Translations under genes and position numbers: made by a program
The notes under the pieces: model-generated
Told to the model about the DNA's origin: nothing
Seen by the model: the letters and a program-made list of their open reading frames with translations, nothing else
Database searches by the model: none
Assembly (NCBI GenBank): GCA_031274995.1
Contig: JAISPJ010000033.1
Span: 18,810-82,809, forward strand
Length of the DNA: 64,000 bases
Direction of reading: 5' to 3'
Source of the DNA: Azoarcus sp.
GTDB taxonomy: Bacteria > Pseudomonadota > Gammaproteobacteria > Burkholderiales > Rhodocyclaceae
Shown here: piece by piece, positions 2,709 to 17,224 of the stretch
Layout: every line of letters starts with the position of its first letter
Position numbering within the stretch: the first letter of the stretch is position 1

Positions 2709-3023
2709 CTACGCCGTGACCGCTTCCTCATAGCGTTGGATGCGCGGCAGGATGTTGGCCAATTTCACGCGGGTACGCGCCGTGTCGTAGTCAGATTGCA
2801 GGCCCATCCAGAATTCTGCCGTGGTGCCGAAGAACCGCGACAGGCGAAGCGCGGTATCTGCCGTCACCGCGCGCCGTTCGCGCACGATGTCGTTGATGCG
2901 CGGTGCGGGTACCTGCAAACCCATCGCCAAAGCATGGGCAGACATTCCAAGCGGGGTCAGGAATTCTTCTCGCAGGACTTCGCCAGGGTGAATGGGCCTC
3001 ATGCCGTTTTCAATGTGTGCCAT
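2709..3023 (-). CDS. higA: HigA-family antitoxin (XRE, addiction module)
   Basis: MRPIHPGEVLREEFLTPLGMSAHALAMGLQVPAPRINDIVRERRAVTADTALRLSRFFGTTAEFWMGLQSDYD. Confidence 0.93.
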   Translation of the reverse strand: MAHIENGMRPIHPGEVLREEFLTPLGMSAHALAMGLQVPAPRINDIVRERRAVTADTALRLSRFFGTTAEFWMGLQSDYDTARTRVKLANILPRIQRYEEAVTA

Positions 3024-3035
3024 CGCAAAACCTCT

Positions 3036-3314
3036 TCAGTGATAATCAACAATCTCAACGTCAAACGCATGGCCTTCCCGCCACACAAAGCACACGCGCC
3101 ACTGATCGTTGATGCGGATGCTGTGCTGCTCCTTGCGATCCCCCTTCAAGGCTTCAAGCCGGTTATTGGGCGGGATGCGCAGATCGTCCAGCATGACCGC
3201 ACGGTGGAGCATTTGCAGCTTGCGTTCAGCAACGTTGCGAATATTGACGAAACGCGCCGCGCTGTGTCCGGCGAACAGGTCATGGGTGATCGGGCATTTG
3301 AACGATTGGATCAT
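3036..3314 (-). CDS. higB: HigB/RelE-family toxin
   Basis: MIQSFKCPITHDLFAGHSAARFVNIRNVAERKLQMLHRAVMLDDLRIPPNNRLEALKGDRKEQHSIRINDQWRVCFVW; immediately upstream of higA. Confidence 0.92.
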   Translation of the reverse strand: MIQSFKCPITHDLFAGHSAARFVNIRNVAERKLQMLHRAVMLDDLRIPPNNRLEALKGDRKEQHSIRINDQWRVCFVWREGHAFDVEIVDYH

Positions 3315-3644
3315 GGTTTGAATTATATAACGTCTTTCGTTAAACGACAAGTGATAAATCGTATTTTATTCGAACACACGCGAAACCCCAACTCTTGGAT
3401 TCTCAAGCCCATTGAATAACTACAAGTCGGCCTTGATCCAGAGAATTTGCGATAAATTTTAACCATTGCCAAAATTTTTTCGTGCATATCTCACTACGAC
3501 AAGCCAAAGCACACACCATCATCGGTATGCGAAATTTTTTCGCACATCGTCCGCGCCTGCGGCCGAGCGGCGTTCGATTCCAAATCCTGGCAAAGCCCGC
3601 TTCCGCCAGATGCAAATGCAAATGGCAGGTACTGCCTTAGGTGG

Positions 3645-3749
3645 CTAATGGCGCTTGCCCGACCAGAGAATCGTCACTACAATCGGCAATGCCCTGATAA
3701 TAATAAGGCAACGCCATAAACCGCCTTGTACTGGCAGTTTCGCCTGCAA
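3645..3749 (-). CDS. Copy A of a duplicated small hydrophobic protein, possibly degraded start
   Basis: TTG/GCG-start frame LQAKLPVQGGLWRCLIIIRALPIVVTILWSGKRH*; AAGGAGG directly upstream; homologous to 5087..5179. Confidence 0.5.
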   Translation of the reverse strand: MQAKLPVQGGLWRCLIIIRALPIVVTILWSGKRH

Positions 3750-3816
3750 GCCTCCTTCGGGGAGACTGGTTGGCAAAAGCGCCCCGTGCGCATCAACTGG
3801 ATGAGAAGGACGAAAA

Positions 3817-4599
3817 ATGACACTCCCTTCACAGATGCTGCCTTGGCCGATCACTTGGGAGGGCGTCGCGCTCATCGCCCAATCCGAAGGGTGCCGCCTG
3901 AATGCGTACCAGGACGCGGTGGGCATCTGGACAATTGGATGGGGCGAGACCCTCAACGTGCGCAAAGGCATGGCATGGACGCAGCAACAGGCTGACGAGG
4001 CGCTCTGCGCACGCCTGAAAGAATTCGCCGTCGGCGTCCTGCGCACAATCACCAACCCCGGCACAACACCGTTGCAGCTCGCCGCCTTCGTGAGCCTTGC
4101 CTACAACATAGGAGAGGCCGCGTTCGGAGGCTCCAGTGCGCTACGGCTCCACAACCAGGGAAAATACCCGGAGGCCGCCGCGGCAATCAAGCTCTGGAAC
4201 AAGGCAGGCGGCAAAGTGCTTGCCGGCCTTGTGACGCGAAGGGCCAAAGAGGCGGAGCTATATCTCGAAGGCGTGCCCGTCCAGGTCGTTGCGCAGGTTG
4301 ACGAGCCGCTTGACGAGCCGCTTGACGAGCCTATCAACCCTATCAACGGCGTGCCGGACGCGGACGCGGATTGCGAAAAGCCGCTCTACCAATCGACCTC
4401 GATGCAGGCCGGGACGGTCACTGCGGTGATATCAGGGCTTGCCGTGGCGACGGAGGTATCAAGGCAGGTTGCCGGCGACCCGTACTCGGCCAGCCTGATC
4501 CCGCACTGGCTGATCCCCGCGCTGCTCTGCGTTGTGCTGGCAGCGGGGATCGTCGTCATGGTCCGCGCCTGGAAGCGAAAGCAAGAGGGCAGGTCATGA
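3817..4599 (+). CDS. Phage-type GH24 lysozyme (endolysin) with C-terminal TM segment
   Basis: WEGVALIAQSEGCRLNAYQDAVGIWTIGWGET...LQLAAFVSLAYNIGEAAFGGSS; C-terminal HWLIPALLCVVLAAGIVVMVRAWKRK; AGAAGG RBS. Confidence 0.88.
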   Translation: MTLPSQMLPWPITWEGVALIAQSEGCRLNAYQDAVGIWTIGWGETLNVRKGMAWTQQQADEALCARLKEFAVGVLRTITNPGTTPLQLAAFVSLAYNIGEAAFGGSSALRLHNQGKYPEAAAAIKLWNKAGGKVLAGLVTRRAKEAELYLEGVPVQVVAQVDEPLDEPLDEPINPINGVPDADADCEKPLYQSTSMQAGTVTAVISGLAVATEVSRQVAGDPYSASLIPHWLIPALLCVVLAAGIVVMVRAWKRKQEGRS

Positions 4600-4872
4600 T
4601 TGGCGCTTGGCCGAAGTAACTTTCAGTGCGCTGCCGGAGTTAAGCATGGTCTTCCATGTTAATCTATCCGCCATGTTTTCTCTTCACGCCCTGTTTTGTG
4701 GAAACAGCATGTTGCGCACAATCGCATGAACGGCTATCATCCGCGCCTCTTGTTGTGCGGCACAGCCACACGAACAGACCGGCGGAAACCGGGATATTGG
4801 ATTATTGAATAAATCCAATCCCTTGAAGCCGGCAAATTTTCTGGCGTGCTGCTACAATGTGGCACCCCACGC

Positions 4873-4949
4873 GGAGTGGTAGTTCAGTTGGTTAGAATAC
4901 CGGCCTGTCACGCCGGGGGTCGCGGGTTCGAGCCCCGTCCACTCCGCCA
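4873..4949 (+). tRNA. tRNA-Asp (GTC), CCA encoded
   Basis: GGAGTGGTAGTTCAGTTGGTTAGAATACCGGCCTGTCACGCCGGGGGTCGCGGGTTCGAGCCCCGTCCACTCCGCCA. Confidence 0.97.
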
Positions 4950-5086
4950 CTTTTATTTTGCGTAGCATCTTGATTCATAAAAGAAAAAAGCTGCTGCCGT
5001 CATCGGACAAATCGAAGGTTTACGCTGAGCCTTGATAAAGCCCGCACCTCACCAAACGGCAAGGGGCGGGGTACTGCTTTCGGTGA

Positions 5087-5179
5087 TTAATGACACTTGC
5101 CAGACCACAGCAGCAACACTAGAATGACTACTGCCCTAATCAGGCAACGCCAGAAACCACCTTGCGACGGTAGTTTCAC
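5087..5179 (-). CDS. Copy B of a duplicated ~30-aa hydrophobic protein
   Basis: GTG start, VKLPSQGGFWRCLIRAVVILVLLLWSGKCH*; AAAGGAGG (5189-5196) 9 nt upstream; paralogous to 3645..3749. Confidence 0.55.
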   Translation of the reverse strand: MKLPSQGGFWRCLIRAVVILVLLLWSGKCH

Positions 5180-5211
5180 TACAAACCACCTCCTTTGAGG
5201 AGCGTGTTTGG

Positions 5212-5244
5212 CGAAAGCGCCCCGACGCAAACGGGGCGCTTTCG
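5212..5244. repeat. Perfect 13-bp inverted repeat in the leader of small ORF copy B
   Basis: CGAAAGCGCCCCG ACGCAAA CGGGGCGCTTTCG. Confidence 0.85.
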
Positions 5245-5373
5245 TTTGCGCCCCGCACGCATTTTCTCATACTTTTGTCATTATATGCCAAGGGCATTCC
5301 CTCCTGTTGGACGGCAGATTGCCGCCTCTACAGTCGTTTGTATTAGGATTCGGTCTGACCCAAGGTTACGCCG

Positions 5374-5499
5374 ATGCCAAACCATAATGATGAGATTTTC
5401 AACCGGGTCATGAGCGACAAGTAATTCCGCAACGCCGCCCACGAGCATCTGGCACGTGAGGTTTATGAGCGCATTCGTGGTGGGGATCGGAAAAACTGA
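5374..5499 (+). pseudogene. Degraded C-terminal remnant resembling a type I restriction R subunit
   Basis: MPNHNDEIFNRVMSDK*FRNAAHEHLAREVYERIRGGDRKN* with an in-frame TAA. Confidence 0.4.
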
Positions 5500-6392
5500 G
5501 TTTCTTCCGTGAACTGGCCCTGCGCAAGGGCATCCAGCAACACTTTATTGACCTCGATCTGCTGGCGCTGCCAGTGGGCCAGGTCGCCGGGGGAGATGCC
5601 GGGCTGGCTGTCCAGTGCGCTGAGCCAGCGTTTCCAGTGGGTGCGGTAGCGGTGAATGGATACTTCTCCGGTGATGTCGCTCCCGATGAGACGCGGCGCG
5701 GCGGCACCGATGATGGAGAGCAGGCCATCGAGCGGCATCTGTCCCTGATCCCAATTGGTACGCGCTACGTTCTCGCTCAGGACGTCCTTGTCGATGGAGA
5801 GGTACAGGGGGGCGTGTGTGCCGGAAAGCTCACGGCACAGCGCCGAGATGAGGCTTTTGGCATTGTCGAAATTGCGTGCGGCATCGCGCAGGCCCAGGGC
5901 GCGCATCCAGCCGAGCTTCGCGCCTATCGTCCAATACCGGATACGTTTTCGGGCGAGCGGCCACAGATGGTTTTCCCAGGCGTGTGTCCAGCCAACGTCC
6001 GGGGAGCAGATGCCGATTACGTCGACACATGCGACGTGTGGCATGCGCGCAATATGCGCGACCCACGACCCGCAGTGGATGCCGAAAGGGAAACGCATGT
6101 TGTCCGGGTGGTTGTCGCAGACCAGGACATGTAAGCCAGTGTGTCGGTGTTGCCGCGCAATCAGAAGGGCGCTTATATGGTGAAAATCCCCGCTGCCCGT
6201 CAGCACGGGGCCGTACACATCGGGAAACAGGGTTTCGAGATGCGCCGAAAACGTGCGCCACTCGCGCCCTGTGCATCCGAAGCGGATGCGCTCTTGCCAG
6301 TCGGCCAGTTCGATGCGCGTAAGGCCGGATCGTTCCATCGTGCGTAACGAACCGTCCAGGTCGAGCACGAGCGGGGCAAGGTTTCCGTTCAT
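5463..6392 (-). CDS. Arginase/ureohydrolase-fold protein
   Basis: MNGNLAPLVLDLDGSLRTM...VCDNHPDNMRFPFGIHCGSW (DxHxD-like)...LYLSIDKDVLS (SxDxD); ATGA overlap with the upstream gene. Confidence 0.7.
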   Translation of the reverse strand: MNGNLAPLVLDLDGSLRTMERSGLTRIELADWQERIRFGCTGREWRTFSAHLETLFPDVYGPVLTGSGDFHHISALLIARQHRHTGLHVLVCDNHPDNMRFPFGIHCGSWVAHIARMPHVACVDVIGICSPDVGWTHAWENHLWPLARKRIRYWTIGAKLGWMRALGLRDAARNFDNAKSLISALCRELSGTHAPLYLSIDKDVLSENVARTNWDQGQMPLDGLLSIIGAAAPRLIGSDITGEVSIHRYRTHWKRWLSALDSQPGISPGDLAHWQRQQIEVNKVLLDALAQGQFTEETQFFRSPPRMRS

Positions 6393-7504
6393 TGGCCGGG
6401 CGTTGGCGATGACGGGGCGTTTGAACCGTCGAACCATTGCCTGTCCGGTTCAAAATGTCCGGCAATGCGCCGCAGAAGAGGGCGCAGCAAGGGATTGCGC
6501 ACGTATACGGCGTGGCGCGTCGGAGTGAAACGCGCACCGAGGGCAGCCTTGACGGCGGGATCTGTCCAGCCCGCAATGTAGAAACGCAATCCCTCGCGCT
6601 TCGCGTAAGCGAGGTTTTCCATCCAGCTCACAAAATACAGGTTGCACTCGCGCGCCATGGGATAGCGAAAACCGATGTACTTGTCGACGAGCATGCCGTC
6701 ATGGATGAAACACAGGTTGTGCCCGATGAGCCTGTCTTCCTGGTAGTACAGGAAAATACGCCCGTTGAGCGAGGAGTCATGCAGCATCGCCCTGAAAAAT
6801 TCAGGAGAAAGCAGGTCGAAGTGAGTCGTGCTCTGGATATAGACCTCCAGGTATTGCGTGTAGAGTTCTACCGCAAGGGCCGGTTCCTCAAGGCACGGGT
6901 CGCCCGTGGCGACGATTTCAACGTGCACTTCCCGGCGGCGGCTGCGCAGTTTGCGGCGAATGTCGCGGCGGCGGCTGGCAGAGAGCCGCGCCAGATAATC
7001 GTCCTCATCGGCAAAGTCGATGGGAACCCAGGCCAGCGCCTGTCCTTCGACCATGAAAAATCCATTGGCCTTGCAGGCATCGGCGAGTTGATCGGCAAGA
7101 CGGTTGGCCTGCCCGGAGAGAAAAGGCGCGTCGCAGGGGATGTCCTTGACGATCAGCAAGGCGGATTTTCGGCCCCAGGCCTGAAACATGCCCTGTACGA
7201 GCGCCTCTGCTTCCATATGTGGCAACGGGCAATATTCACTGACGGGAGTGCCCATAAAACATGTGCGCCATTTCAGCAGGTGGCGCAGATACCGGTTGCC
7301 GGGTATTTTTCCGATCATGGACAGTGCCCGTTCATCCGCCGTGGTGAGCAGGTCGAACATCGTCCAGAAACCGGGTTGGCCGGTCACGCAGGTGAGCGGC
7401 TCGAACTCCTTTTGTGGATAGCGCATGAAATAGTCGACCAGCGCACCGGGTTCCACGCTGGTCAGCCAGCGTGGCGTGCCGGGTGCGGATGGTTTCCCGT
7501 TCAT
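6389..7504 (-). CDS. GNAT/BioF2-like acyltransferase
   Basis: MNGKPSAPGTPRWL...DYLARLSASRRRDIRRKLRSRR...IFLYYQEDRLIGHNLCFIHDGMLVDKYIGFRYPMARECNLYFVSWMENLAYAKREGLRFYIAG; ATGA overlap with the DegT gene. Confidence 0.7.
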   Translation of the reverse strand: MNGKPSAPGTPRWLTSVEPGALVDYFMRYPQKEFEPLTCVTGQPGFWTMFDLLTTADERALSMIGKIPGNRYLRHLLKWRTCFMGTPVSEYCPLPHMEAEALVQGMFQAWGRKSALLIVKDIPCDAPFLSGQANRLADQLADACKANGFFMVEGQALAWVPIDFADEDDYLARLSASRRRDIRRKLRSRRREVHVEIVATGDPCLEEPALAVELYTQYLEVYIQSTTHFDLLSPEFFRAMLHDSSLNGRIFLYYQEDRLIGHNLCFIHDGMLVDKYIGFRYPMARECNLYFVSWMENLAYAKREGLRFYIAGWTDPAVKAALGARFTPTRHAVYVRNPLLRPLLRRIAGHFEPDRQWFDGSNAPSSPTPGQ

Positions 7505-16378: not shown

Positions 16379-17224
16379 TTACTCGATATGGCAATCTAGC
16401 TCGAACCCCGCGCCGTCATCCGTGCCAAGCGCCCCGGCAAGCCACGGTAGCGCCGCTTGCAGGCGTTCCGGCAATACCCACGGCGGATTGATGACATACA
16501 AGCCGCTGCCGAACATGCCGACCCCTTCCTGCGGGGCGTGACTGATCCGAAAGCGCACATCCAGCCAACTCCCCGCCCCGAGTTCCGCCAGTTGCTTCGG
16601 CAACCGCCGGGACTCGGCACGCGCCAGCAACGGATACCAGAGCACGAAACACCCGGTCGCAAACCGCCGCAACGCCTTGGTGAGCGTTGTTATCACGCGC
16701 GAATAATCGGTTTTCACCTCGTAGGACGGATCGATCAGCACCACGGCCCGGCGTGATGGCGGCGGCAACAGCGCGTCGAGTCCGGCCAGCCCGTCACTGC
16801 CACGCACATGGACGCGGCGCGGCTCGGTACTGAAAGTTTGATGCAACGTCCGCAAGTCTTCGGGATGCAGCTCGAACAATTGCAGGTTGTCCCGTTCTCG
16901 CGCGAAAGTCATCGCCACGGCAGGTGAACCGGGATAAAGCAGCAGCCGGCCGCCGGGATTGAACTGGCGCACGACCTCCACATAAGCCGCCAGCGGTTCC
17001 GGCAGATCGCTGCGTCCCCACAACAGCCCGAACCCTCCGGAAAATTCCCCGGTCTTACCCGCAACCTCGCTGTTCAGCACATAACAGCCCGCGCCCGCAT
17101 GTGTATCGATATACGTCCAGGGCTTATCCTTCTTTTGGTAATAAGCGAGCAGTTCGGTCAGTACGAAATGTTTGATGACATCGGCGTGATTTCCGGCATG
17201 GAATGCGTGGCGGTAACTTAACAT
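16379..17224 (-). CDS. rlmJ: 23S rRNA (adenine2030-N6)-methyltransferase
   Basis: MLSYRHAFHAGNHADVIKHFVLTELLAYYQKKDKPWTYIDTHAGAGCY...VLIDPSYEVKTDY. Confidence 0.94.
   Translation of the reverse strand: MLSYRHAFHAGNHADVIKHFVLTELLAYYQKKDKPWTYIDTHAGAGCYVLNSEVAGKTGEFSGGFGLLWGRSDLPEPLAAYVEVVRQFNPGGRLLLYPGSPAVAMTFARERDNLQLFELHPEDLRTLHQTFSTEPRRVHVRGSDGLAGLDALLPPPSRRAVVLIDPSYEVKTDYSRVITTLTKALRRFATGCFVLWYPLLARAESRRLPKQLAELGAGSWLDVRFRISHAPQEGVGMFGSGLYVINPPWVLPERLQAALPWLAGALGTDDGAGFELDCHIE

What the first reader, a model, noticed from the sequence alone, without database searches (positions are those of the whole stretch)
3645..5285. Duplicated ~30-aa hydrophobic ORF on the minus strand, candidate small-toxin/membrane-peptide family
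Two divergent ~170-bp elements on the minus strand (about 3627-3795 and 5071-5285) encode related peptides: A = LQAKLPVQGGLWRCLIIIRALPIVVTILWSGKRH, B = VKLPSQGGFWRCLIRAVVILVLLLWSGKCH. Seen directly: the only indel inside the frame is 6 nt (two Ile codons). The only non-triplet difference (2 nt) lies in the spacer between a conserved AAGGAGG and the start. Several differences are synonymous (CTG/CTA Leu, CCA/CCG Pro, GGC/GGT Gly, CTT/CTG Leu, CTC/CTG Leu, TCG/TCT Ser). This pattern fits protein-level conservation. Both end in an invariant LWSGKxH-stop. Copy B has TATAAT on the minus strand (5280-5285) and a strongly structured leader. Inference: a short single-TM peptide behind a structured leader in a mobile-element scar resembles type I toxin or phage small-membrane-protein loci. 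Copy A's GTG has become GCG, so A may rely on an upstream TTG or be decaying.
Basis: partly seen in the sequence, partly recalled or inferred. Interest (0 to 1): 0.72.

Follow-up and report, generated by a model that had tools for sequence, protein, structure and literature searches.

The report
New type I toxin–antitoxin family candidate
The two look-alike stretches are copies of a tiny gene for a membrane peptide whose own coding sequence hides a backward-facing promoter for an RNA that would silence it; this looks like an undescribed family of RNA-controlled toxin genes in termite-gut relatives of Azoarcus and in Neisseria-like bacteria, with one copy intact and one decayed here.

Summary
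Observation confirmed. Copy B (ORF 5087-5179, minus) is intact. Copy A (3645-3743) is a decayed paralogue: GTG start changed to GCG, sense promoter and 5' leader arms gone. Homologous elements occur in 15 of 22 genomes of the genus (termite-gut 'Azoarcus' MAGs), in three other Rhodocyclaceae genera, and in a second family rich in Neisseria uptake sequences. They encode several different 29-38 aa peptides (basic N-terminus, one hydrophobic stretch) on one conserved RNA chassis: a sense -10 box, a leader hairpin and a Shine-Dalgarno (SD) hairpin, both covarying, and a terminator. Inside the ORF, on the opposite strand, lies a sigma70 promoter (TTGnnn, 17-18 bp, TAnnnT), present in 46 of 49 unique ORFs against about 6 expected from synonymous-codon resampling. 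Its predicted ~115-nt RNA would cover codons 1-16, the SD and the leader. This is type I toxin-antitoxin architecture, closest to aapA/IsoA of Helicobacter. Pfam, NCBIfam, PHROGs and Rfam have no matching family. Not shown: that the antisense RNA is made, that it represses, that the peptide is toxic.

The parts
5087..5179 (-). Copy B ORF: GTG start, VKLPSQGGFWRCLIRAVVILVLLLWSGKCH, stop
   Evidence: translation checked; homologues in many genomes; dN/dS mostly 0.3-0.55
5261..5269 (-). Sense extended -10 box TGAGAAAAT; transcript start expected near 5254
   Evidence: box conserved at the same distance from the leader in aligned elements, as GAGAAT, TAGAAT, TATAAT; no transcript data
5249..5257 (-). 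5' segment TGCGGGGCG at the expected mRNA 5' end; can pair with the leader's GCCCCG or with the 3' CCCCGC
   Evidence: pairing with the leader possible in nearly all members but almost invariant; pairing with the 3' end is inference
5212..5244 (-). Leader hairpin CGAAAGCGCCCC..GGGGCGCTTTCG; on the + strand it would act as terminator of the antisense RNA
   Evidence: covariation; terminator role inferred
5182..5212 (-). Hairpin that holds the Shine-Dalgarno sequence AAAGGAGGTGG (5186-5196)
   Evidence: covariation incl. double changes in all 5 outer pairs with Neisseriaceae copies added; low SD accessibility in folding
5097..5125 (+). Antisense sigma70 promoter inside the ORF: TTGCCA (5097-5102), 17 bp, TAGAAT (5120-5125)
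   Evidence: only promoter-like site found in 5000-5320; conserved in 46 of 49 unique ORFs against about 6 expected
5132..5246 (+). Predicted antisense RNA, about 115 nt, covering codons 1-16, SD and leader
   Evidence: inferred from promoter and hairpin positions; folds at -51 kcal/mol; no transcript data
5033..5071 (-). Intrinsic-terminator-like hairpin after the ORF (CCCCGCCCC..GGTGCGGG CTTTATCA)
   Evidence: sequence; equivalent hairpins follow the ORF in relatives
3645..3743 (-). Copy A remnant frame AKLPVQGGLWRCLIIIRALPIVVTILWSGKRH, stop; GCG (3741-3743) in place of the start
3751..3757 (-). Copy A Shine-Dalgarno AAGGAGG, retained
3655..3683 (+). Copy A antisense promoter TTGCCC, 17 bp, TACAAT, retained; no leader terminator left, so transcription could run towards the lysozyme gene at 3817
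   Evidence: read-through is inference

Best explanation
Copy B is a type I toxin-antitoxin module and copy A its decayed relative. The sense strand makes a ~220-nt, highly folded mRNA for a 30-residue peptide with a basic N-terminus and one hydrophobic helix. Its SD, a near-perfect match to the 16S tail, is held in a hairpin. A sigma70 promoter embedded in codons 19-28, facing the other way, makes a short antisense RNA over the first half of the ORF, the SD and the leader, which pairs with the mRNA, blocks translation and leads to decay of the duplex. When antisense supply falls, mRNA that has refolded or been processed is translated and the peptide acts on the inner membrane. Shown: peptide conservation, conservation of the in-ORF antisense promoter beyond codon constraint, covarying leader and SD hairpins. 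Inferred: that the antisense RNA is made, that it represses, and that the peptide is toxic.
For: Homologues across a genus, other genera of the family and a second family. Several sequence-unrelated basic/hydrophobic peptides of 29-38 aa on the same RNA chassis. Purifying selection. In-ORF antisense promoter in 33/35 unique Rhodocyclaceae ORFs against 1.3-4.0 expected with the peptide held fixed, and 13/14 in Neisseriaceae against 2.0; only the 17-bp spacer is strongly enriched in the first set. Leader and SD hairpins covary, 0 of 500 shuffles reach the observed score. B mRNA folds 8 SD below shuffles. Tandem copies and frequent decayed copies. Same layout as aapA3/IsoA3: 225-nt mRNA, 30-aa peptide, antisense -10 box inside the ORF, SD hairpins (PMC6733600).
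Against: No transcript, translation or toxicity data. The sequences are related, so counts are not independent trials. Two ORFs of genus g74 (L152, L161) and one Neisseriaceae ORF (L181) lack the promoter motif. The 5'-3' long-distance pairing typical of aapA and hok is possible but unproven here.
Confidence: 0.8

Rival explanations
1. A non-toxic small membrane protein under cis-antisense control, for example a regulator of a membrane enzyme or transporter. The antisense RNA and SD hairpin tune its level.
For: The sequence evidence shows antisense control and peptide selection, not toxicity.
Against: Several unrelated peptides share the chassis, patchy presence, tandem copies and frequent decay fit a toxin better than a housekeeping partner; no shared neighbour genes apart from one 29-residue match.
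Confidence: 0.14
2. A leader peptide or attenuator that controls a downstream gene.
For: Strong leader hairpins and terminators.
Against: Terminator directly after the ORF, different neighbours at different loci, hydrophobic conserved peptide and an antisense promoter, neither of which attenuation needs.
Confidence: 0.02
3. A noncoding structured repeat (BIME-like or mobile RNA element) in which the ORF is incidental.
For: Repeat-like multi-copy occurrence and covarying stems.
Against: dN/dS mostly 0.3-0.55, in-frame indels between most copies, unrelated sequences that all keep SD, start, basic/hydrophobic profile and stop.
Confidence: 0.02
4. A phage lysis gene (holin or spanin type) left by the prophage that brought the lysozyme.
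For: Phage-type lysozyme at 3817-4599 between the copies.
Against: The lysozyme has only one weak match elsewhere in the genus while the elements are common; elements face the other way; no phage or plasmid record matches.
Confidence: 0.02

Closest known systems
[quoted passage not shown]
   Same: 30-aa membrane peptide, ~220-nt structured mRNA, SD sequestered in hairpins, antisense promoter -10 inside the toxin ORF, several chromosomal copies
   Different: Different peptides and leader sequence, different class of bacteria; 3'-end processing and 5'-3' pairing not demonstrated here
hok/Sok (plasmid R1 and chromosomal)
   Same: Basic/hydrophobic small toxin, cis antisense RNA, possible metastable 5' hairpin; decayed chromosomal copies (PMC8309996). 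The start MKLP and a W-C-LI pattern recall Hok from memory only
   Different: No Pfam hit to the Hok family; peptide ends right after the helix; antisense promoter lies in the toxin ORF; no mok-like frame was looked for
Fst/Ldr superfamily of type I toxins
   Same: Short single-helix membrane toxins, often in tandem copies
   Different: The PXXXGC motif (PMC8309996) is absent; family I has only PxxxG ahead of the helix

Membership tests
Type I toxin-antitoxin systems (general) | Small (<60 aa) hydrophobic peptide under selection | tested here: met
   29-38 aa, hydrophobic 15-mer 1.65-3.25 on the Kyte-Doolittle scale, dN/dS mostly 0.3-0.55
Type I toxin-antitoxin systems (general) | Antisense RNA gene overlapping the toxin mRNA | tested here: inconclusive
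   Promoter conserved beyond codon constraint; the RNA itself cannot be seen with these tools
Type I toxin-antitoxin systems (general) | Primary transcript with sequestered SD | tested here: met
   In silico only: covarying SD hairpin and low SD accessibility
Type I toxin-antitoxin systems (general) | Peptide toxic, neutralised by the RNA | not testable with these tools
   needs expression experiments
aapA/IsoA | Antisense promoter inside the toxin ORF | tested here: met
   paper facts
aapA/IsoA | 5'-3' long-distance interaction removed by 3' processing | tested here: inconclusive
   complementary segments present, no covariation test possible on near-invariant sequence
aapA/IsoA | Sequence homology to AapA peptides | not tested
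   no AapA sequence was compared
hok/Sok | Match to the Hok protein family | tested here: not met
   no hit in Pfam at E up to 10, though HMMER filters drop most weak matches
Fst/Ldr | PXXXGC motif | tested here: not met
   absent in the aligned peptides

The most novel reading that the evidence does not exclude
One ancestral RNA chassis (leader hairpin, SD hairpin, in-ORF antisense promoter) spans Rhodocyclaceae and Neisseriaceae and carries interchangeable, sequence-unrelated membrane peptides: a type I TA superfamily defined by its RNA rather than by its toxin, not described in the literature I could search.
Probability: 0.5. Interest if true: 0.72.

Novelty: new member of a known kind. Interest (0 to 1): 0.62.

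Why it matters
Type I systems are known from few lineages, partly because the usual searches rely on sequence features of known loci (PMC12390103). Here a model of the RNA chassis found several peptide families at once, including in Neisseria-like genomes, for which the papers searched showed no type I system. It gives a search handle (leader model plus promoter-in-ORF test) and a clean experiment: synonymous mutation of the antisense -10 box.

Tried and rejected
Viral-contig DNA pattern scan: two hits, both in the same start region of what reads as an integrase gene, chance matches. Phage and plasmid collections: nothing relevant. Rfam: no family for the element. Pfam, NCBIfam, PHROGs: none for the peptides. 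Weak leader-model hits in other genera: the five inspected (L154, L156, L158-L160) were plain terminators and were discarded, as were three of five order-level hits. Class-level search of 274 genomes: only the own genome. Model R2 folded to an odd consensus and was not used. A start-codon hairpin within family I ORFs is only weakly supported against non-cognate pairing (about 0.05). No structure prediction was run: a 30-residue helix would not decide between the explanations.

Full report
Observation. The two minus-strand elements are real. B has a complete gene anatomy. A keeps the SD, the frame and the antisense promoter, but has GCG in place of GTG and has lost the sense promoter and the first arms of the leader.

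Relatives. A DNA search of 41 related genomes found strong homologues only within the genus. A peptide profile and then a covariance model of the leader (R1) found elements in 15 of 22 genomes of the genus at E below 1e-6. Public titles of some of these contigs are 'Azoarcus sp.' and betaproteobacterial or proteobacterial MAGs; their termite-gut origin is my reading of the isolate names, not a tool result. Among 399 genomes of the family, real elements (leader, SD, ORF) occur in genera g69, g74 and g77. Among 399 genomes of the order only one further family, f44, had real elements; a survey of that family gave hits in 14 of 83 genomes. Loci of f44 carry 54 copies of the 10-mer GCCGTCTGAA in 55.5 kb against 1 of its reverse. 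This is the Neisseria DNA uptake sequence (established knowledge), so f44 is taken to be Neisseriaceae (inference).

Peptides. Family I reads M-K-x-P ... C-L-I-R-A, hydrophobic stretch, S-G-K-C. Family II reads M-K-P-T ... R-W-R-R, hydrophobic stretch, Y-S-K. Others look unrelated in sequence, such as MGKSDNSGQSARRVWKLVVKFILAAILFFFNTPAG (L076), MEDTTRGNSRRRRILRYVVMCILAMLLAMCNTPVW (L155) and MKHTTRTGRSWLRLRTVIRIILTLFLLLVN (L165). All have a positive N-terminus and one hydrophobic stretch. dN/dS between equal-length family I copies is mostly 0.3-0.55; synonymous sites are themselves constrained, so the true protein constraint may be stronger.

Antisense promoter. Opposite each ORF lies TTGnnn-17-TAnnnT. 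The simple consensus scan finds it in B at 5097-5125 as the only promoter-like site of the region. With each peptide held fixed and synonymous codons resampled from window codon usage, 33 of 35 ORFs have it against 1.3 expected, and 17 bp is the only strongly enriched spacer. With uniform or element-pooled codons and spacers of 17 or 18 bp the figures are 33 of 35 against 4.0, and 13 of 14 against 2.0 in f44; six of the f44 ORFs use 18 bp. The same position holds in peptides of unrelated sequence. The sequences share ancestry, so these are not independent trials.

RNA structure. Leader and SD hairpins covary: 27 double-change cells against 7.8 in shuffles, and 44 against 14.8 once f44 is added, with slid controls far lower. 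B's mRNA folds 8 SD below shuffles. A rival 5' hairpin (5' end with the first leader arm) is possible in nearly all members but almost invariant, so covariation says nothing about it; by analogy with hok it could be a metastable nascent structure (inference).

Context. Eight loci share no neighbour genes apart from one 29-residue match. Tandem copies occur. Decayed copies are frequent: frameshifts, lost or premature stops, lost promoter. In the window a lone phage-type lysozyme lies between A and B; only one weak match exists elsewhere in the genus.

Mechanism. By analogy with aapA3/IsoA3 (PMC6733600) the antisense RNA should block translation and trigger decay of the duplex, and the SD hairpin should prevent early translation. 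The peptide should act at the inner membrane. These steps are inferred.

Verdict. A new, unnamed family of type I TA-like loci. The architecture is known; the family is new as far as the resources searched here show. T1TAdb could not be checked.

Noticed in passing
window 3817-4599 (+): Lone phage-type lysozyme (GH24-like, PF00959) with a hydrophobic C-terminal stretch, between the two copies; in the genus only one weak match in another genome.
   Followed up: partly
window 3655-3683 (+): The antisense promoter of decayed copy A survives without its leader terminator and points at the lysozyme gene, so it may now drive that gene.
   Followed up: no
window 2709-3350 (-): HigB-like toxin (PF05015) and HTH antitoxin pair, a type II TA, next to copy A.
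   Followed up: partly
L076 783 and 1489; L151, L152, L153, L157, L161: A second leader class: CCGGGCG at the 5' end, complementary to CGCCCGG just before the SD, and a hairpin loop CACCT complementary to AGGTG; same kind of peptides.
   Followed up: partly
L173 2155-2242 (+): Rfam match to sRNA-Xcc1 (RF02221, 88 bits) in a Neisseriaceae locus near an element.
   Followed up: no
window 16944-17031 (-): ARAGORN reports a tRNA with a 4-base anticodon (gccg); not listed by Rfam, probably spurious.
   Followed up: no
window 5463-6437 (-): ORF of 324 aa with only a sub-threshold arginase-family match.
   Followed up: no
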